Of a DNA stretch of 64,000 nt, positions 9,489-19,579 are shown piece by piece. The stretch spans positions 392,501 to 456,500 of the forward strand of contig NZ_CP083553.1 of NCBI RefSeq assembly GCF_025144465.1, given 5' to 3'. The DNA comes from Leisingera sp. S132. Lineage in GTDB: Bacteria; Pseudomonadota; Alphaproteobacteria; Rhodobacterales; Rhodobacteraceae. The notes beneath the pieces were generated by a model. That model searched no databases, was not told the origin of the DNA, and saw only the letters and a program-made list of their open reading frames with translations. A program made the translations under genes and the position numbers. The stretch's first letter is position 1. Every line of letters starts with the position of its first letter.

Positions 9489-9692
9489 ATGACTGCATAT
9501 CTGAAAACGATGCTGTCCAAACTGCGCGGCGATGAGCGCGGGGTGACACTGGTGGAGTACGGCATTGCCATCGCGCTGGCAGTGGCTCTGGGCACTGCTG
9601 CCTTGGACAACCTGGCGGGTGACGTCGGGGACTCGATGGATGCGGCAGGGGCCTGCATGCCGAACTCGGACGGATCCGCGTCGACTTGCTAA
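9489..9692 (+). CDS. flp: Flp/Fap-type major pilin
   Basis: A 67-residue type IVb prepilin, the major subunit of Tad pili used for surface attachment. The prepilin cleavage site is ERG|VTLVEYG with the cut after G18, giving E23 at mature position +5 and the adjacent Tyr of the Flp motif. A hydrophobic stretch to about residue 45 and a short polar tail ending in Cys follow. It is the first gene of a long pilus cluster and is separated from cpaB by 205 bp, as is common for highly expressed pilin genes. Confidence 0.92.
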   Translation: MTAYLKTMLSKLRGDERGVTLVEYGIAIALAVALGTAALDNLAGDVGDSMDAAGACMPNSDGSASTC

Positions 9693-9897
9693 CTTGTTGC
9701 GTTGTCTTCCCGATCCCGATCGGGGAGCCTGGCGGATTCGGGGCTTCGGGGGGAATGCTCCGCATCCGCCAGAAAACTGCCGCTGGCGTTTACCTGCGGC
9801 AAGCACGGCAGGAAGCAGAAGCCTGCGGCCACATTTTCCGACGAACAGCCGGGACCGCCCTTCTGCTGCGCCAGCCAGCGACGAAAGGAAACCTGGC
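9693..9897. other. flp-cpaB intergenic spacer
   Basis: No gene is supported here. A short hairpin (CCCGAT/ATCGGG, 9709-9724) follows the flp stop without a T tract and could mark the 3' end of a separate pilin transcript. Confidence 0.4.
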
Positions 9898-10713
9898 ATG
9901 AATATTTCATCACTTCTCAGCATGATTTCCGGACTGGCCCTGGCGGGCGGCTCTGCCTATGTGGCTAAGGATTACATCGACGGGCAGGCCGTGACCGGCG
10001 GCCCTGAAGGGCCGGCGCTGGTCGAAGTTGTGGTCGCCTCTCAGGATATCGCTTTCGGGACGGCATTGACCGCGCAATCGCTGACCACCATTTCCTGGCC
10101 GGCCGAGGCCCGGCCCGCTGGCACGTTTACCAGTTTTGACGCCTTGCTTCCGGATACCGGAAAACCGCCGCGCCGCGCCCGCCGCGCGATTGCACAGGGA
10201 GAGCTGATCCGGGCGTCCAAGGTCTCGAACTTCGGGGAAAAGGTGACGATCGTGCAGACGCTCAGCCCGGATCACCGTGCGATGGCCCTCAAGGTCAGCG
10301 CAGAAACCGCAGTGGGCGGTTTCGTGACCCCGGGCGACAGCGTTGATGTGCTGCTGACCCAGGGCCGCGGTGCCGGGCTGAAAACGGTGACCATCCTGCA
10401 GAACGTCCGGGTGATCGGTGTGGACCAGGATGCCAACCAGGAAACTGACCAGCCGGGCGTCGCCCGCACGGTCACGGTTGAGGTCACTCCGGACGGAGGC
10501 CAGCGCCTTGCTCTTGCGCAGCGCGCGGGCACGCTGAGCCTGACCTTGCGCAATCAGGAAGCGGCTGCCGAGGAGGTTCCGCTGGAGTCGATCAGCCTGA
10601 ATGACGTGCTTCGGAATGTGCAGGTGCAGCTGCCGGAACCGGCGGCAGAGCCTGCGCGCAGGACCGTTCTGATCCGCCGCGGCACCGAAGTGTCTGAAAC
10701 TGAAATCCGCTGA
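9898..10713 (+). CDS. cpaB: Flp pilus assembly protein CpaB/RcpC
   Basis: The 271-residue periplasmic pilus-assembly protein begins with a membrane anchor (MNISSLLSMISGLALAGGSAYVA). A SAF-type domain follows (VVVASQDIAFGTALTAQSL at about 40-60, then ARRAIAQGELIRASKVS) and an RcpC-like domain (MALKVSAETAVGGFVTPGDSVDV). In Tad systems CpaB works with the secretin in the outer part of the machine. GAAAGGA nine bases upstream of 9898 supports this start; the frame is open far upstream without further evidence. Confidence 0.9.
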   Translation: MNISSLLSMISGLALAGGSAYVAKDYIDGQAVTGGPEGPALVEVVVASQDIAFGTALTAQSLTTISWPAEARPAGTFTSFDALLPDTGKPPRRARRAIAQGELIRASKVSNFGEKVTIVQTLSPDHRAMALKVSAETAVGGFVTPGDSVDVLLTQGRGAGLKTVTILQNVRVIGVDQDANQETDQPGVARTVTVEVTPDGGQRLALAQRAGTLSLTLRNQEAAAEEVPLESISLNDVLRNVQVQLPEPAAEPARRTVLIRRGTEVSETEIR

Positions 10714-10743
10714 TTGAAACCGCACTGAGAGGCCTGCCGGACC

Positions 10744-12201
10744 ATGCGCCAGAACAACCGCATAAGAAAGTTTGCACAGGATGAGCGCGGCACGATGCTG
10801 GTCATCTGGGGGCTGACCTTTGTGGTGCTGCTGGGGATTGCGGCGATGTCGTTCGACCTGGGCCGCACGGGCATCACACGCAGCGAACTGCAAGCCTACA
10901 CCGACAATGTGGCGCTGGCCGCTGCAGGCGAGCTGGACGGCAAGAATGATGCCATCACCCGCGCCCGGGCTGCTGCCGCCAATCTGATCAGCGACCGCAA
11001 GACCTTCGGCACCGGCGGCAGCGTGCTGAGCGGGGATACCGATTACACGCTCACTTTCTATTCCGAACTGCCCGATGATGACGCCGCGGCCCTGACCGCT
11101 GTCACCGCAGACCCGGCAGAGGCGGCCTTTGTCCGCGCCGTCGCAGCGCCCAGCACGGTGCCCGCCACCTACGGCGCGGTATTTGCCGCGCTGACCGGCC
11201 GGTCCCGCCCGAATGAATTGGCGCGGGCCTCATCCGTGGCGGGCTTCACCCAATATGCCTGCGACATTACCCCGCTGATGTTCTGCGTCCCGCCGGGCTT
11301 CTCGGCGGACGCCAGCATCGGCGACATGATCCTGCTGCGTTCCGGCGGCAGCGGTTCCGCCTGGGGCCCTGGGGACTTCGGCTTTCTTGATCCGGCCAAG
11401 GTGCTGGTCGATGACGAAGGGCCATGCGCGGGGCTCAACGGGGCGCAGCTGGATGCCTGCCTGCTGGGGGCCGAAGGCAGCATCACCCAGTGCTTCAGCC
11501 AGCGCGGTGTCGATATCGAGCCGGGGCAGAAAGTGGGCATCCGCGATGCCATCTTCAACGTGCGCTTCGATATCTACAAGGCGATCATGAACGGCAAGCG
11601 CAATGACGCCGACTACCCGCCGGCGCCCAATGTCATCAAGGGCATTGTGCCCCATGGCGGCGGCAGCTGCATCGGCAGCAACGAAGACCCGTCGCCGGAC
11701 ACCGTGGGCCTGCCGCGCGATGATTGTTTTGCTGCCGGTGGCTGCGCGCGCTTTGGTGACGGCAAGTGGACCGCCGGGCGGGCCGGCTATGTCGGCACCA
11801 ACTATGGCGGCGTCGACCCGCACCCCGGGGCCACCACCCGCTATGAGTATTATCTGGAAGAGATTGATGCCGCTGGCGGTCCCGGAGGCGCTGGCGGCAT
11901 CCTGTCGGGTCTGGCTGAGACCGGCCGCCCGGTGTGCTCACCCAACCAAAGCGCCAGCCCGCAGCGCCGGGTGGTGATCGCCGCGGGAATCGACTGCGCT
12001 GCAAACCCGATCAACGGCTCGACCTCCGATGTGCCGGTGCAGGAATTCGTGAAGATCTTCCTGACCGAGCCGGTGGGTGACGACGGCGCCTCGCCGCCAA
12101 CCCTGGATATCTGGGGCGAGGTTGTGGGCAGCGCGGGCGGCGGGGCCGGGGGCACTGGTGACGCCGGTATCTTCCGCGATGTCGTGCAGCTCTACAGGTG
12201 A
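10744..12201 (+). CDS. TadG-like pilus assembly protein with Gly/Cys-rich extension
   Basis: The 485-residue product has a TadE/G-type N-terminus: a positive stretch, DERGTMLVIWGL and one transmembrane helix ending near residue 39, followed by SELQAYTDNVALAAAGELDG, the usual start of TadG-like proteins. The glutamate at +5 after the Gly is absent, so it may not be processed as a pilin. From about residue 170 there is a long extracellular region rich in Cys, Gly, Pro and Asp (for example GGPGGAGG near 380) that I do not recognise. It overlaps the next gene's start region, so co-translation is likely. Confidence 0.75.
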   Translation: MRQNNRIRKFAQDERGTMLVIWGLTFVVLLGIAAMSFDLGRTGITRSELQAYTDNVALAAAGELDGKNDAITRARAAAANLISDRKTFGTGGSVLSGDTDYTLTFYSELPDDDAAALTAVTADPAEAAFVRAVAAPSTVPATYGAVFAALTGRSRPNELARASSVAGFTQYACDITPLMFCVPPGFSADASIGDMILLRSGGSGSAWGPGDFGFLDPAKVLVDDEGPCAGLNGAQLDACLLGAEGSITQCFSQRGVDIEPGQKVGIRDAIFNVRFDIYKAIMNGKRNDADYPPAPNVIKGIVPHGGGSCIGSNEDPSPDTVGLPRDDCFAAGGCARFGDGKWTAGRAGYVGTNYGGVDPHPGATTRYEYYLEEIDAAGGPGGAGGILSGLAETGRPVCSPNQSASPQRRVVIAAGIDCAANPINGSTSDVPVQEFVKIFLTEPVGDDGASPPTLDIWGEVVGSAGGGAGGTGDAGIFRDVVQLYR

Positions 12202-12206
12202 TCGGG

Positions 12207-12710
12207 ATGGCTGGCAAAACACATTTCTCCGGCGGCTGGACCGCCTTTCGCAAGAGGGAAGAGGGCGCGGTGCTGGTGGAGTTTGCACTGATGCTGCCGG
12301 TGATGCTGCTGGTTTTTGCGGTGATCATCGAGGGCGGGCGGATGATGTGGTCCTACCAGGCTGCAATCTCCGGCGTGCGCGATGCAGCCCGTTACCTGGC
12401 GCGGGTGGCGCCGCAGAACATCTGCTCCTCCGGCGGCACTGTGGACGCGCACCAGCCGCAACTGCTGGCGATCGTGCGCGAAAGCATTTCGGGTGATGCG
12501 CTGTTTCCGGCCAGCCTTGCGGTGACCTCAGTCACCCCCGGCCTGACCTGCCAGGCGGGCAATTACCGGATTTCGCCTGCGCCGGTTGTGACGGTGCGGG
12601 CCAGCCTGACTATGACCTTTCCTTTTGCGGGTGTCTTTGAACTGAACGGCGGCAGCCGTGCCACCATCAATACGGTCATCACCGACCAGAGCCGGGTATT
12701 CGGAACATGA
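12207..12710 (+). CDS. tadE: TadE-family pseudopilin
   Basis: A 167-residue pseudopilin with the processing site EEG|AVLVEFALMLPVMLL and a single N-terminal transmembrane helix. The ATG at 12207 is preferred over a GTG at 12198 that overlaps the upstream stop. TadE-like minor pilins are processed by TadV and are needed for Flp pilus assembly. The gene abuts the preceding tadG-like gene and its stop overlaps the next start (ATGA). Confidence 0.85.
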   Translation: MAGKTHFSGGWTAFRKREEGAVLVEFALMLPVMLLVFAVIIEGGRMMWSYQAAISGVRDAARYLARVAPQNICSSGGTVDAHQPQLLAIVRESISGDALFPASLAVTSVTPGLTCQAGNYRISPAPVVTVRASLTMTFPFAGVFELNGGSRATINTVITDQSRVFGT

Positions 12711-13351
12711 AGGCACTGACGAAAGAATATGCAGCGCTGCGCCGGTTCCGCCGGGATCAGGAGGGCGCCGCGCTGGTGGAGCTGGGCGTTGCCATCCCGC
12801 TGTTTCTGCTGTTGTTCATGGGCATCATCGATTTCGGCCGCATGGCATTTCACTATGTGGTGGCGGAACGGGCGATGAATGTGGCCGCCCGCGTGGCCGC
12901 GGTGCGGCCGCCGGCCTGCGCCGGGGTGCCGGAATTTCACCGGCGCGACCCATCGGCCACCGGCACGCCGCCGGAGTTCGGCACCTCCTGCCGGGCCGGG
13001 ACGGACATCTGCCTGGATGCGGGCACGGTGACCTGCGCGGGCAGTGCGGCCAATGCCACGGCAAATGAAATCTGGGGCCTGGTTCGCGGCGCGATGCCGC
13101 CGGATGCCACCATCGCCGCGCTTTCGTTCAGCTACAGCTACGACGGCAGCCTCGGCTTTCTGGGCGGGCCTTACGTGCCCGTGGTCACGGTGGAGCTGCA
13201 AAACCAGACATTTCAGTTCGTGTCGCCGCTGGGGCGGCTGGCGGCGCTGGCCGGTGCGGCGGGGGGATCCGGCCTGGGTGCTGCGGTGCCGTTCCCGCCG
13301 ATGAGCGTCTCTTTGCCGGGTGAGGACCTGGCACTGGGCCAGAGCGGCTGA
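12707..13351 (+). CDS. second TadE-like pseudopilin
   Basis: A 214-residue TadE-type protein with the site QEG|AALVELGVAIPLFLLLFMG and the +5 Glu retained. Four Cys residues fall between about 67 and 107 (PPACAGV, TSCRAG, DICLDA, VTCAGS), suggesting disulphides in the extracellular part. It overlaps the preceding tadE by four bases. It is either TadF-like or a second TadE; homology alone would not separate these. Confidence 0.82.
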   Translation: MKALTKEYAALRRFRRDQEGAALVELGVAIPLFLLLFMGIIDFGRMAFHYVVAERAMNVAARVAAVRPPACAGVPEFHRRDPSATGTPPEFGTSCRAGTDICLDAGTVTCAGSAANATANEIWGLVRGAMPPDATIAALSFSYSYDGSLGFLGGPYVPVVTVELQNQTFQFVSPLGRLAALAGAAGGSGLGAAVPFPPMSVSLPGEDLALGQSG

Positions 13352-13374
13352 AGCGACAGAGAAAGGAGAGGCCG

Positions 13375-14607
13375 ATGCAGGCTGAAACACAATCCATTGC
13401 GGTCATCTCAAAGGATCCGGCTGTCTGTGCGCTGGTTGCCAGCGTGGCGCAGTTTCAGCCCGGGACCGGAGTGCAGAAATACGCATCCGCGCTCACCGAC
13501 ATAAACGGCACCGCGCTGCAGCTGGCCAAGGACAACGATCTGATCATTTTCCGCGCCGGGGCAGATGCGGCCGCCGACGCTGTGGCGGTCAGGGAGATGC
13601 TGAGCCACACCGGCGGCGATGCGCGGATCCTGGCCCTGGCCGATACCCGCATGCCCTTTGCTGATCTGCGGCTGCTGACAGAGGCCGGGGTGCTGGATGT
13701 GCTGCCGGAAACCGCTTCCGTCGACGAGATGTCGGCGGCGATCCGCAAATGCCTGAAGGCAGAGGAGGCGCAACCGGCCCCCGGCGGCACTGCCCGCGGC
13801 AGCCGCGAAGGCATGGTGGTTGCAGTCAGCCAGTCCTGCGGCGGTGCGGGGGCGACGACGCTGGCTGTGAACCTGGCGGACTGCCTGACCCGGCGCCGCG
13901 GCTTGCGGCGGCGGGAGGCGGAGTTCAAGGTCGCTCTCCTGGATCTGGATCTGCAATTCGGCGCTGTCGGCAGCTTCCTCGACTTGCCGCCGAACCGCTG
14001 TCTTTACGAACTGGCAAGCGAGGGGTTCGTTCCCGACGATGTCTTTGCCGGACAATCCATGAGCGAGGCCGCCCCCGGACTGTGGGTGCTGGCAGCCCCG
14101 GCGGAGATTGCCCCGCTGCATGCGCTGAAACCGGAACAGGTGCAGGCGCTTGTCGCGCACATGCGCCAGCAGTTCGACTTCGTGGTGATCGGCCTGCCGC
14201 GGGCGCTGGCGGAATGGCTGACGCCGGTTCTGGAAGCCAGCGAGCGGCTGCTGATGGTGACCGGCAGCTCGGTGCCTGCGATCAGCCAGGCGCGGCGGCT
14301 GCTGGATTTCTATGCCGAGGCCAGCATGAGCTTGCAGACCGACATCGTGATCAGCCGCGAACGCAAGCCGCTGTTCGCTGCAAGCCACCACAAGGAAGCC
14401 TCCAAGCTGCTGCAAAAGCCGTTCAAGTACTGGCTGCCCGACGATCCATCGGCCGCTGCTGCCGCGGCGGACCGCGGCGTGCCGCTGTCATCTGCCGCCG
14501 GCCGCTCCAGCCTGGCCAAGGCGATCCGGCGGCTGTCATGCGACCTGATTGAAACAAGAAAAGCCCGCACCAGCGCGGCGCAGCCTCAGCAGGGAAAGGC
14601 GGTTTGA
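13375..14607 (+). CDS. cpaE: CpaE/TadZ-type pilus localisation ATPase
   Basis: The 410-residue protein has an N-terminal receiver-like domain (to about residue 130) and a MinD/ParA-like ATPase domain. The Walker A region is CGGAGATTLAVNLAD, and LLDLDLQFGAVGSFLDL forms the A' motif. In Tad systems this protein places the secretion machine at a pole or patch and binds the CpaF ATPase. GAAAGGAGAG before the ATG is a strong ribosome site. It is one base short of overlapping cpaF. Confidence 0.9.
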   Translation: MQAETQSIAVISKDPAVCALVASVAQFQPGTGVQKYASALTDINGTALQLAKDNDLIIFRAGADAAADAVAVREMLSHTGGDARILALADTRMPFADLRLLTEAGVLDVLPETASVDEMSAAIRKCLKAEEAQPAPGGTARGSREGMVVAVSQSCGGAGATTLAVNLADCLTRRRGLRRREAEFKVALLDLDLQFGAVGSFLDLPPNRCLYELASEGFVPDDVFAGQSMSEAAPGLWVLAAPAEIAPLHALKPEQVQALVAHMRQQFDFVVIGLPRALAEWLTPVLEASERLLMVTGSSVPAISQARRLLDFYAEASMSLQTDIVISRERKPLFAASHHKEASKLLQKPFKYWLPDDPSAAAAAADRGVPLSSAAGRSSLAKAIRRLSCDLIETRKARTSAAQPQQGKAV

Positions 14608-14608
14608 G

Positions 14609-15999
<1,391 letters not shown>

Positions 16000-16000
<1 letters not shown>

Positions 16001-16992
16001 TGCTGAAGGAAATCTTGAACGGCGTGCACAGCTGGAATGGCCAGCTGGGGGGCTACGCGGTCTATTGCGGCATTGCAGTCGGGGTTTTGCTGCTGATGTC
16101 CGGGCTGCGGCAAATGCTGGGCCGCAAGGGCCGGTCGGCAGCCTCCCGCAGCCGCCGGATGCGGATGATTGCACAGGGGCGCAGCGGCACTGATCGTCTT
16201 GCCATCCTCAAGCCGCCGCAGCAGCGGACCGGATGGCGGCGCATTCCGGTGGCGGGGGATCTGCCGCAGATCCTGCGCCAGGCGGATGTGCCGCTGAGCC
16301 CAGGCCTGTTCTGGCTCGGCTGCACTGCGCTAACCGTCCTGGTTTCGGTTGCCGCAGCGGGATATGCGGGGTTGCCACAGGGGCTTGCGATCGGGGGGCT
16401 TGCCGGCTTTGGCGTGCCGTTTGCGCTGCTGCTCAACCTGCAGCGCAAGAAGATGGACAAGCTGATGCACCAGCTGCCGGACGCGCTGGAAATGCTGGCA
16501 CGCGGCCTCAAGGTGGGTCACCCGCTGAACAACTCGATCGGTATCGCCGCCCGCGAGATGCCGGACCCGGCAGGCACCGAGCTGGGCATCATCTTTGATC
16601 AGGTGACCTATGGTGACGACCTGCCGGATGCGGTGCAGGAATTTGCCGACCGGACCGGGCTTGAAGACGCGCAATACCTGGCCGCCAGCATCAGTATCCA
16701 GCACGGCACCGGCAGCGATCTGTCGGTGATGCTGGAAACCCTCGCGCGGGTCATCCGCAGCCGCATTGTCCTGCGCCGCAAGGTGCATGCTCTGGCCTCC
16801 GAGGGGCGGTTGACTGCCTGGATGCTGTCGGCCCTGCCGCTGGTGATCTTTGCCACCGTCTCGGTGCTGACGCCGGACTACTACGCGGGCGTGGCAGAGG
16901 ATCCGCTGTTCCGGCCGATGATGGCCGGAATCGTCCTGCTGACCGTTCTGAACGCGCTGATGCTGCGCAAACTTGTCAATTTCAGGATCTGA
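16000..16992 (+). CDS. tadB: Tad pilus inner-membrane protein TadB
   Basis: The 330-residue inner-membrane platform protein has a T2SSF domain in its C-terminal half (MLARGLKVGHPLNNSIGI, then GTGSDLSVMLETLARVIRSR) flanked by paired transmembrane segments. Its start overlaps the cpaF stop by one base. With TadC it forms the membrane platform driven by CpaF. Confidence 0.92.
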
Positions 16993-17007
16993 CCGGGGAG
17001 GCCTGCC

Positions 17008-18009
17008 ATGGAGGAATATGTCACAGGGGTATTGACTGGAACCGGGCTGGCGCCTGGTGCGCTGGCCGCCGCCGCGGTGGCCGCAGCTGTACTATTGATC
17101 TACTTTGGTGCTGCTGCCGGCATGGCCCGGAAATCGCCCGCTGCGGCGCGGCTCTCGTCGCTGGGGGAGACCCGCCGCCGGCAGTCCCGGGACTTGGCGC
17201 TGCTGAAGGCGCCTGCTGACCAGCCTGGCGGGCTGATGAAGGCCTTTGTGCCTGCCAGCCTGACGGAACGGTCGGAACTGGAGAACAAGCTGTCCCAGGC
17301 AGGGTTCTCGCAGGCCGGGGCGCTGCGCGCGTTCACGCTGATCCGGGTCTTGCTCGGGCTGGCACTGCCGGGGGTGCTGCTGCTGGTCATCGCCGCCGCC
17401 AAGACACCGGGTTTATTGCCGGCCAATCCAGTGACCGCGCAGGTGGCGGGCTGGACCAACATGCAGGTGTTCCAAGCGCTAAGCGGGCTGGTGGGGGCGG
17501 GTTTCTTTGGCCCGGTCTATGTGCTGAACGCCCGCGCCGCTGCTCGCCGCCGCCGGATCGAGGAGGCTTTCCCCAACGCGCTGGACCTGATGCGCATCTC
17601 GGTGGATTCCGGACTGGGCTTCGACGCCGCCATGACCCGGGTCGGCAACGAACTGGCGCAGGTTTCGCCGGATCTGGCCTTTGAGCTGCTCAGCGTCCAG
17701 CGGCAGATCCAGGCCGGCCGGGCGCGGCAGGATGCGCTGCTCGATATGGCCAGCCGAACCGGCGTCGAGACGGTCCGGTCGTTTGCCAATGTGGCCCTGC
17801 AGTCAATGCAGTTCGGCACCAGCATGGCGGCGGCGCTTGCGACGTATTCCGAGGACCTGCGCAATCAGCGGGAAATGCGCGCGCAGGAAATGGCCAGCAA
17901 ACTGCCGGTCAAGATGTCGGCGGTTCTGGCCTCCCTGATGCTGCCTGCGCTGATCATGATTACCATCGGCCCGGTGGTAATCCGCTACATCCGTTTCATT
18001 GCGAACTGA
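17008..18009 (+). CDS. tadC: Tad pilus inner-membrane protein TadC
   Basis: The 333-residue partner of TadB has an N-terminal transmembrane helix, a central pair, and a T2SSF domain (FPNALDLMRISVDSGLGFDA). The C-terminal helix follows KLPVKMSAVLASLMLPALI. A 15-bp gap separates it from tadB and GGGGAGG precedes the ATG. TadD and other lipoproteins that often follow tadC are absent. Confidence 0.92.
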   Translation: MEEYVTGVLTGTGLAPGALAAAAVAAAVLLIYFGAAAGMARKSPAAARLSSLGETRRRQSRDLALLKAPADQPGGLMKAFVPASLTERSELENKLSQAGFSQAGALRAFTLIRVLLGLALPGVLLLVIAAAKTPGLLPANPVTAQVAGWTNMQVFQALSGLVGAGFFGPVYVLNARAAARRRRIEEAFPNALDLMRISVDSGLGFDAAMTRVGNELAQVSPDLAFELLSVQRQIQAGRARQDALLDMASRTGVETVRSFANVALQSMQFGTSMAAALATYSEDLRNQREMRAQEMASKLPVKMSAVLASLMLPALIMITIGPVVIRYIRFIAN

Positions 18010-18260
18010 TTCGAAACCAATTTGGACAATTGCCGGAAATGGTTGCGATTGGTTCGGGCCCTTAAGTCCAAAAGACTGAAAAAATCGCCCTAGGATTGCA
18101 AATTTGCGCGGCTGGACGCAATTTTCGTCAAATTCTTGACGCAATTGAATGGGCCGGCCAGCATGAGGGGACGCAATAGGGGGTTGATAGGTACGGGCGC
18201 TTGCTAAGTTACTAAAAGCGCTATGTTAAAAGTTAACATTGCTGTGGGGGGACGCGCGTT

Positions 18261-19100
18261 ATGGGGACCAATGCGCATTTTGACACCCACACCATTCGGG
18301 CTGCTGAGGCCGGAATGATTGCGCCAATTGCGCGCTGGTGTGAGTGTTTGCACGGCTGTGCGCCTTTCAGGGACGCGTTGAGCGGACTGGCGGCGGCCAT
18401 TAAAGGGGAAGCAGCTGCAATTTGCAGGGTATCAACCGGCCAGGGCCGGGCTTCCGGATCGGTTTTCTTTGACAGGGCTGCGGGCAGCGGAAACGGACCG
18501 CCACTGGAGCGCTCTTTTGCCCGCTCGGTGCTGGGCAGCTATCTGGACAAGGCCAAACCTGGTGCGATCTGGTACAAATCCATGAGCGACGAAGCGGCGG
18601 ATCCGGTTCTGGACCGGTTCCACACGTCCCGCAATATGGTGGAACTGGCGGTGATCCCGCTGTCGTCCGGCAAGCAGCACACCGATTTCCTGGAGGTTCA
18701 TTTCTCCTCCCGGCCCGGTGCGGTGCAGCAGGCGCTGCTGAACATCATCTCCGGCACCTTGGTGAGGACTTGGACCAACCGGTCGCCCGGGCTCTACGCC
18801 GAGGCCTGCCTGACAGAGCGGCGCGCGGCCCGCGGATCCGGTGTCCAGGCGCATCTGCTGAGCATGGAGAACCCGGCCCAGCTGAGCCGCGCCGAGTACC
18901 GCGTCTGCGTGCTCTTGAGCAAAGGTCAGACGGCCAAGCGGGTGCAAACGGATCTTGGAATCTCGAAATCGACGCTGCGCACACATTTGCGAAACATCTA
19001 TGCCAAGACGCAGACCGGCAACATGAGCGAACTTGTTTACCGGCTGGTCTCTGTCGACAGCTTCTCGGGGCAGGTGCCGCGGCGCATTTCGGCGGCATGA
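18261..19100 (+). CDS. LuxR-type HTH regulator inside the Tad cluster
   Basis: The 279-residue protein ends in a LuxR-type helix-turn-helix (about 205-265: LSRAEYRVCVLLSKGQTAKRV, then LGISKSTLRTHLRNIYAKT). The N-terminal 200 residues match no sensor domain that I recognise with confidence; there is no obvious receiver phosphorylation site or acyl-homoserine lactone domain. It lies 251 bp after tadC and overlaps tadV (ATGA). It probably controls pilus expression or phase, but that is inference from position. Confidence 0.8.
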   Translation: MGTNAHFDTHTIRAAEAGMIAPIARWCECLHGCAPFRDALSGLAAAIKGEAAAICRVSTGQGRASGSVFFDRAAGSGNGPPLERSFARSVLGSYLDKAKPGAIWYKSMSDEAADPVLDRFHTSRNMVELAVIPLSSGKQHTDFLEVHFSSRPGAVQQALLNIISGTLVRTWTNRSPGLYAEACLTERRAARGSGVQAHLLSMENPAQLSRAEYRVCVLLSKGQTAKRVQTDLGISKSTLRTHLRNIYAKTQTGNMSELVYRLVSVDSFSGQVPRRISAA

Positions 19101-19579
19101 CGGCGGGAGCCGATCTCCTGCCGCTGGCTGCGGCCACGCCGGTTCTGATCCTGGCCGCAACGGGGGACCTGCGGCACCTTCGGATATCCAACCGGCTGAT
19201 GCTGGGATTGGCTGCGGTCTTTCTGCTGACCGCGCCGCTGCTGCCGTTGGCGGAAACCGGGCTGCGCCTGCTGGCAGCCAGCATTGTTTTTGCCCTGTGC
19301 TTTGCGCTGTTCTGCGGGCGGGTGCTGGCAGGGGGCGACGTCAAGATGATGGCGCTGGCCATGCTGTTTGTGCCGTCCTCCGCGCTGGCGGCCTTCGGCT
19401 GGAGCTTTAGCGCCGCAATGCTCACTGTGCCTCTTGCACTGACTGTGCTGGGCCGGATTGAGGCCGCTGCCGCCTGGCGGCATTGGGCTTCGCTTCAGAC
19501 GCCGGGGAAGATGCCGATGGGGGCAGCCATTTCCCTGGCTTTGATGCTCTTGCTGATTGTTCTGGCTGCCAAGGCGTGA
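19097..19579 (+). CDS. tadV: prepilin peptidase TadV/CpaA
   Basis: A short A24A-type aspartic peptidase of 160 residues that cleaves Flp and TadE-like prepilins. It has about five transmembrane helices and both catalytic aspartates in context (ATGDLRHLRISN and AGGDVKMMAL). The ATG at 19097 overlaps the stop of the LuxR gene; a longer in-frame extension would lie wholly inside that gene. It closes the pilus cluster and converges on the Lrp-type regulator. Confidence 0.9.
   Translation: MTAGADLLPLAAATPVLILAATGDLRHLRISNRLMLGLAAVFLLTAPLLPLAETGLRLLAASIVFALCFALFCGRVLAGGDVKMMALAMLFVPSSALAAFGWSFSAAMLTVPLALTVLGRIEAAAAWRHWASLQTPGKMPMGAAISLALMLLLIVLAAKA

What the first reader, a model, noticed from the sequence alone, without database searches (positions are those of the whole stretch)
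9489..19579. Tad pilus locus without a visible secretin, with an embedded LuxR regulator
flp, cpaB, two tadE-like genes, cpaE, cpaF, tadB, tadC and tadV are present, but no cpaC/rcpA secretin, OmpA-like protein or TadD lipoprotein appears. A LuxR-type regulator with an unrecognised N-terminal domain sits between tadC and tadV. Either the outer-membrane parts are encoded elsewhere or this is a secretin-independent variant, perhaps with the large TadG-like protein taking an outer role.
Basis: partly seen in the sequence, partly recalled or inferred. Interest (0 to 1): 0.55.

Follow-up and report, generated by a model that had tools for sequence, protein, structure and literature searches.

The report
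Tad pilus locus lacking its secretin
This marine bacterium (a Leisingera) carries a second pilus-building gene cluster without its own outer-membrane gate, and nearly all examined relatives with this cluster also carry a complete pilus cluster, so the simplest explanation is two pilus motors sharing one exit pore, with a dedicated regulator attached to the gateless one.

Summary
Window 9489-19579 holds flp-cpaB-tadG-tadE-tadE-cpaE-cpaF-tadB-tadC-luxR-tadV and no secretin, OmpA-like or TadD gene. The secretin is encoded elsewhere: 2.46 Mb away on the same contig lies a complete Tad locus with secretin, OmpA, TPR proteins, motor and platform. In a 199-genome, one-per-genus family sample, 23 genomes carry the window-type locus and all 23 also hold a Tad secretin (base rate 165 of 199; Fisher p=0.010). 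Of 79 named genomes, 78 hold it; in the 79th the complete locus runs off a contig end. Relatives in Novosphingobium and Rhizobium have the same gene order with a secretin between cpaB and tadG, so the Rhodobacteraceae form looks like the same operon minus its gate. TadG homologues coexist with secretins there, so TadG is not a replacement. The CpaB secretin-docking hairpin is kept in 100 of 100 homologues. Best reading: a second inner-membrane Tad machine that uses the resident secretin; sharing is inferred, not shown. The LuxR protein has a predicted GAF/VqsR-like sensor domain and is a near-constant partner. S. meliloti flp-2 is the published precedent.

The parts
9489..9692 (+). flp, major pilin (67 aa), prepilin motif G|VTLVEY, two Cys in the tail
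   Evidence: PF04964 sub-threshold; motif conserved in relatives
9898..10713 (+). cpaB/rcpC, periplasmic alignment ring protein; C-terminal hairpin TVLIRRGTEVSETEI kept
   Evidence: TIGR03177 198.7 bits, PF16976, RcpC 9gzr E 8.5e-12, hairpin conservation
10744..12201 (+). TadG-like large pseudopilin (485 aa), no vWA match, many invariant Cys
   Evidence: PF13400; alignment
12198..12710 (+). tadE-like pseudopilin 1
   Evidence: PF07811 E 5.1e-13
12707..13351 (+). tadE-like pseudopilin 2 (TadF position)
   Evidence: PF07811 E 9.4e-11
13375..14607 (+). cpaE/tadZ, MinD/ParA-type localisation ATPase
   Evidence: PF13614
14609..16000 (+). cpaF/tadA motor ATPase
   Evidence: PF00437 E 2.5e-65; tree
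16000..16992 (+). tadB platform protein
   Evidence: PF00482
17008..18009 (+). tadC platform protein
   Evidence: position and homologues in relatives annotated as T2SS F family
18010..18260 (.). 251-bp spacer before luxR; blocks conserved in Leisingera, e.g. TATGTTAAAAGTTAA; probable separate promoter
   Evidence: alignment of 9 Leisingera-group loci; promoter role inferred
18261..19100 (+). LuxR-type regulator: predicted GAF/VqsR-like N-terminal domain plus GerE HTH
   Evidence: PF00196; model pLDDT 86.6; fold matches
19097..19579 (+). tadV/cpaA prepilin peptidase
   Evidence: PF01478 E 1.7e-10

Best explanation
This is the inner-membrane half of a second, paralogous Tad (type IVc) pilus machine: its own pilin, pseudopilins, CpaE, CpaF motor, TadB/TadC platform, CpaB periplasmic ring and TadV peptidase. 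It has no gate of its own and most likely docks, through the C-terminal hairpin of its CpaB, onto the secretin-pilotin complex (RcpA, TadD, OmpA-like) encoded by the complete Tad locus elsewhere on the chromosome: two machines, one gate. The linked LuxR protein, a GAF-like sensor domain fused to an HTH, most likely switches the cluster on or off in response to a small ligand. Shown: gene content; absence of a gate in the locus; presence of a complete locus in the genome and in nearly every relative; single secretin-less clade; conserved hairpin; conserved LuxR linkage. Inferred: physical sharing of the secretin, that a pilus is made, and the LuxR ligand and targets.
For: Own genome: PF00263 gives two secretins. 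One lies in a full Tad locus, L003, whose TadG(vWA-like)-TadE-TadE trio lies about 110 kb away, L124. The other lies beside an FHIPEP/SctV-type gene on contig C5. Family sample: 23 of 199 genomes carry window-type cpaF (at least 65% identity), all 23 have a further cpaF and 23 of 23 a Tad secretin; base rate 165 of 199; Fisher one-sided p=0.010. Named genomes: secretin in 40 of 40 and 38 of 39; complete-type cpaF in 40 of 40 and 38 of 39. The one miss, G248, has the complete-type cpaF cut off at a contig end. 0 of 104 loci have a secretin, OmpA or TadD. Colinear sister loci with a secretin between cpaB and tadG. Secretin-less Rhodobacteraceae cpaF form one clade, 99/99. CpaB hairpin Arg is invariant in 100 of 100; in P. 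aeruginosa loss of the RcpC hairpin abolishes Tad function (PMC12307814, section 9 read). 35 of 104 loci also lack tadV, at least 8 of them because contigs end or the locus is trio-only, which fits dependence on a partner system.
Against: The complete locus is common (83%), so the co-occurrence is only moderately surprising at genus level, and genomes are not independent. No genome was found that keeps the complete locus's secretin after losing that locus's motor, which would have been a direct sign of sharing. In PMC12307814 RcpC without the hairpin still co-purified with the RcpA N-domain, so the hairpin is not a clean proof of docking. The complete locus's CpaB hairpin is bracketed by two Cys that the window CpaB lacks. 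In S. meliloti flp-2 a separate orphan secretin, not that of flp-1, is the candidate partner (PMC10934763, passages).
Confidence: 0.72

Rival explanations
1. The machine is secretin-independent: it builds a short periplasmic or inner-membrane-anchored filament (pseudopilus) or exits by an unknown outer-membrane route, and the complete Tad locus is only a frequent neighbour.
For: No gate in 104 of 104 loci; a distinct TadG with many invariant Cys and no vWA match; base rate of the complete locus is high.
Against: CpaB docking hairpin kept in 100 of 100; no genome with the window type convincingly lacks the secretin; sister loci have a secretin in the same operon slot.
Confidence: 0.15
2. The locus uses another secretin, such as the T3SS-type one on contig C5 or an orphan secretin, as proposed for S. 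meliloti flp-2.
For: A second PF00263 protein exists in this genome; precedent in S. meliloti (PMC10934763, passages).
Against: Only 7 of the 79 named genomes showed a second distinct secretin place at E<=1e-20 (an eighth, G268, has two places that look like one broken gene), so it cannot be the general partner; here the second secretin sits beside SctV-type and Secretin_N genes.
Confidence: 0.06
3. The locus is decaying and no longer makes a pilus.
For: It lost a component relative to sister loci; two Leisingera loci (L043 ANG-M1, L045 ANG-Vp) show only tadG-tadE-tadE.
Against: All eleven frames are intact in the window and the gene order is kept across many genera, with the CpaF clade well supported.
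Confidence: 0.07

Closest known systems
Sinorhizobium meliloti flp-2 cluster on pSymA (PMC10934763, passages read)
   Same: Second Tad cluster with cpaB but without cpaC/cpaD/cpaO beside a complete chromosomal cluster; deletion mutants imply it makes filaments
   Different: Different gene order; orphan secretin locus on the same megaplasmid; its CpaF does not fall in the Rhodobacteraceae clade (long branch, place unsure)
Complete Tad locus of the same genome (L003, C1:2863-2873 kb)
   Same: Homologous cpaB, cpaE, cpaF, tadB, tadC, tadV
   Different: Has secretin, OmpA, two TPR proteins, vWA-like TadG trio about 110 kb away, no linked luxR
Plasmid tad loci of Novosphingobium sp. ES2-1 and Rhizobium bangladeshense
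   Same: cpaB ... tadG-tadE-tadE-cpaE ... cpaF-tadB-tadC order (Rhizobium has an L,D-transpeptidase gene between cpaE and cpaF)
   Different: Carry a secretin and a small gene between cpaB and tadG; no luxR annotated between tadC and tadV
Myxococcus xanthus Kil system (as described in PMC10934763, passage only)
   Same: Tad-like machine encoded in two complementary clusters
   Different: Predatory killing system; not compared by sequence here
VqsR / LuxR-family regulators
   Same: Ligand-domain fold (VqsR LBD 5xhx, Z 11.1, rmsd 3.2, 149 residues) plus LuxR HTH
   Different: No autoinducer-binding Pfam match at E<=0.01; ligand unknown

Membership tests
Tad / type IVc pilus inner-membrane machine | CpaF/TadA ATPase with TadB and TadC platform | tested here: met
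   tadC by homology and position
Tad / type IVc pilus inner-membrane machine | Flp prepilin with G|xxxxEY motif | tested here: met
   motif in window and in relatives; PF04964 below its cut-off
Tad / type IVc pilus inner-membrane machine | TadE/TadF pseudopilins, TadV peptidase, CpaE/TadZ | tested here: met
   PF07811 x2, PF01478, PF13614 above cut-offs
Complete diderm Tad apparatus in one locus | Secretin RcpA/CpaC in the locus | tested here: not met
   0 of 104 loci; present elsewhere in the genome
Complete diderm Tad apparatus in one locus | TadD pilotin and OmpA-like/RcpB protein in the locus | tested here: not met
   0 of 104 loci (one weak TPR match in L012 at E 9e-4, at the edge of the stretch)
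Secretin-free Tad system (monoderm type) | No Tad secretin in the genome | tested here: not met
Split Tad system (S. meliloti flp-2 kind) | Gateless cluster whose pili need a secretin encoded elsewhere | not testable with these tools
   co-occurrence only; needs a secretin deletion
AHL-binding LuxR receptor | Autoinducer-binding domain PF03472 and AHL binding | tested here: inconclusive
   no Pfam match at E<=0.01, but GAF/LuxR-ligand-like fold
Functional pilus | Filaments on cells | not testable with these tools
   none

The most novel reading that the evidence does not exclude
A secretin-independent Tad machine in a diderm: an old, family-wide lineage that lost its gate and now builds a periplasmic pseudopilus, or exits by another route, capped by a Cys-rich TadG and controlled by a GAF-LuxR sensor.
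Probability: 0.13. Interest if true: 0.8.

Novelty: new variant of a known kind. Interest (0 to 1): 0.4.

Why it matters
If two motors share one gate, Rhodobacteraceae offer a clean natural test of which parts of CpaB and the secretin decide partner choice, and of how a cell can display two pilus types, one under a dedicated sensor, through one pore. It also warns that counting 'complete tad loci' by single-locus gene lists will miss or misjudge such machines in roseobacters, where Tad genes are used as markers of algal colonisation (PMC8383342, abstract and passages).

Tried and rejected
TadG as an outer-membrane substitute: rejected because TadG homologues occur with a secretin in the same loci (L035 56 bits, L036 72, L032 98, L119 91). 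A structure for TadG was predicted from 12 sequences but is too poor to use (mean pLDDT 52), so no fold search was made.

Secretin-less window-type genome without a partner: the one candidate, G248, proved to be a MAG in which the complete-type cpaF runs off contig C122 (12492-12818 of 12818).

Search for a genome that kept the complete locus's secretin but lost its motor: none, so no direct sign of sharing.

Spread: window-type CpaF at E<=1e-175 in 2 of 387 genomes of the class, both in the same family.

Shared regulatory site between the flp and luxR upstream regions: conserved blocks in each, but no common palindrome was established.

S. meliloti CpaF2 placement: long branch, place unsure.

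Not in print: in searches I saw listings only, and opened PMC8383342 (outline with abstract, passages), PMC10934763 (passages) and PMC12307814 (passages, section 9); none of what I saw describes this Rhodobacteraceae locus type.

Full report
What is there. The window lies in a Leisingera: its TadG is 80-92% identical to those of named Leisingera genomes. The locus reads flp, cpaB, TadG-like, tadE, tadE, cpaE, cpaF, tadB, tadC, a 251-bp spacer, luxR, tadV. The flanking genes are aldehyde dehydrogenase-like and aminotransferase-like on the left, and Lrp-type (minus strand), methionine gamma-lyase-like and transketolase-like on the right (read; family names recalled). There is no secretin, OmpA-like or TadD gene in the cluster.

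Where the gate is. The genome (7 contigs, 4.69 Mb) has two PF00263 proteins. One is at C1:2864295-2865704 in a complete Tad locus (L003): cpaB, secretin (PF00263, PF13629, BON), OmpA, cpaE, cpaF, tadB, tadC, two TPR proteins, TadV. Its TadG, with a recalled vWA-type metal-site motif, and two TadE-like proteins lie about 110 kb away (L124 6625-9417). So even the complete system is split. The other secretin is on contig C5 next to a Secretin_N protein and an FHIPEP protein, and looks like part of a type III system.

Does this hold across relatives? In 199 genomes of the family, one per genus, window CpaF gives two clear groups: at least 65% identity in 23 genomes (window type) and 52-59% for the other listed matches (the listing was cut after about 155 rows). 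All 23 have at least one further cpaF, and 23 of 23 have a Tad secretin at E<1e-145. In the same sample 165 of 199 have the secretin. Fisher's one-sided p is 0.010, which is modest because the complete locus is common. A scan of named genomes with the TadG profile kept 80 of 151 confirmed relatives. Of the 79 genomes held (L096's was not), 78 have the Tad secretin (40 of 40; 38 of 39) and 78 have the complete-type cpaF. The exception, G248, has that cpaF cut by a contig end. Eight of these 79 are the same genomes as, judged by identical secretin coordinates, so 94 different genomes were examined and 93 have the secretin. The 80 loci include two (L043, L045) that hold only tadG-tadE-tadE, and several cut by contig ends. 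Outside the family the type was not seen: 2 of 387 genomes of the class, both of this family.

How it arose. Plasmid loci of Novosphingobium and Rhizobium have the same order but with a secretin and a small gene between cpaB and tadG. A Sphingobium plasmid locus (L129) and two Rhodobacteraceae loci (L032, L119) also carry an own secretin. In the CpaF tree the 24 secretin-less Rhodobacteraceae rows form one clade (99/99), separate from the complete-locus clade (100/100) and from the sister loci. Loss of the gate once, at the base of this clade, is the simplest account; the root is not fixed, so direction is inferred.

How it probably works. In P. aeruginosa RcpC (CpaB) forms a dodecameric periplasmic ring whose C-terminal hairpin is modelled to pair with the secretin N-domain, and removing the hairpin abolishes Tad function, although hairpin-less protein still co-purified with RcpA-N (PMC12307814; abstract, passages and section 9). 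In 100 window-type CpaB proteins the linker before the hairpin is variable, but the hairpin has [IV]x[VIL]RR[GA] with the second Arg invariant (100 of 100), Arg or Asn before it (99 of 100) and Gly or Ala after it (100 of 100). A fixed motif search in the last 45 residues found it in 85 of 100; at least some of the other 15 have it upstream of a C-terminal extension. A protein without a secretin to meet would not be expected to keep this. The complete locus's hairpin is flanked by two Cys that the window's lacks, so any docking is not identical. 35 of 104 loci also lack a detectable tadV; at least 8 of these 35 stretches are cut by contig ends or are trio-only. Together this favours a second inner-membrane machine that uses the resident gate.

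The LuxR. A homologue lies between tadC and tadV or near flp in 21 of 22 sampled loci (L017 is cut; in L028 it is split over two frames) and in 74 of 80 named loci. Of the six without, two are the trio-only loci, three are cut by contig ends and one (L115, Ruegeria marisrubri) has none within 20.5 kb. The complete locus has none within L003. The predicted structure is good (mean pLDDT 86.6). Residues about 14-180 match VqsR's ligand domain (Z 11.1, rmsd 3.2, 149 aligned) and phytochrome GAF domains, and Foldseek's best full-length hits are RhlR, SdiA and TraR-type receptors, at low TM-scores. It is most simply a GAF-type sensor with a LuxR HTH; no AHL-binding Pfam domain was found.

Verdict. 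What remains of interest is that this is a conserved, clade-wide gateless Tad machine with its own regulator, of which S. meliloti flp-2 is the nearest published analogue (PMC10934763, passages).

Noticed in passing
L004 8819-12926 (G000 contig C5, 178.6 kb): Secretin, Secretin_N protein and FHIPEP/SctV protein side by side, next to ABC/HlyD-type export genes and an RND efflux gene: looks like a plasmid-borne type III secretion system with a secretin split in two genes.
   Followed up: partly
window 9489-9692: The Flp tail holds two Cys (ACMPNSDGSASTC); similar Cys pairs end the Flp of several relatives (e.g. L010, L022, L023, L024, L028), suggesting a disulphide loop on the pilin.
   Followed up: no
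L043 9273-12108 and L045 9776-12467: Leisingera sp. ANG-M1 and ANG-Vp loci carry only tadG-tadE-tadE of this type, in other neighbourhoods and without motor, pilin or CpaB nearby.
   Followed up: partly
L020, L021; L007-L009, L011, L018: Two or three tandem flp genes in window-type loci of other genera.
   Followed up: no
L119 and L032: Further tad locus type in Rhodobacteraceae with its own distant secretin (40% identity to the resident-type one in L119); the genome of L119 (G142) thus has three tad loci.
   Followed up: partly
window 18010-18260: The spacer upstream of luxR is strongly conserved in Leisingera, including a GTTAA-N2-GTTAA repeat; possible regulator site.
   Followed up: partly
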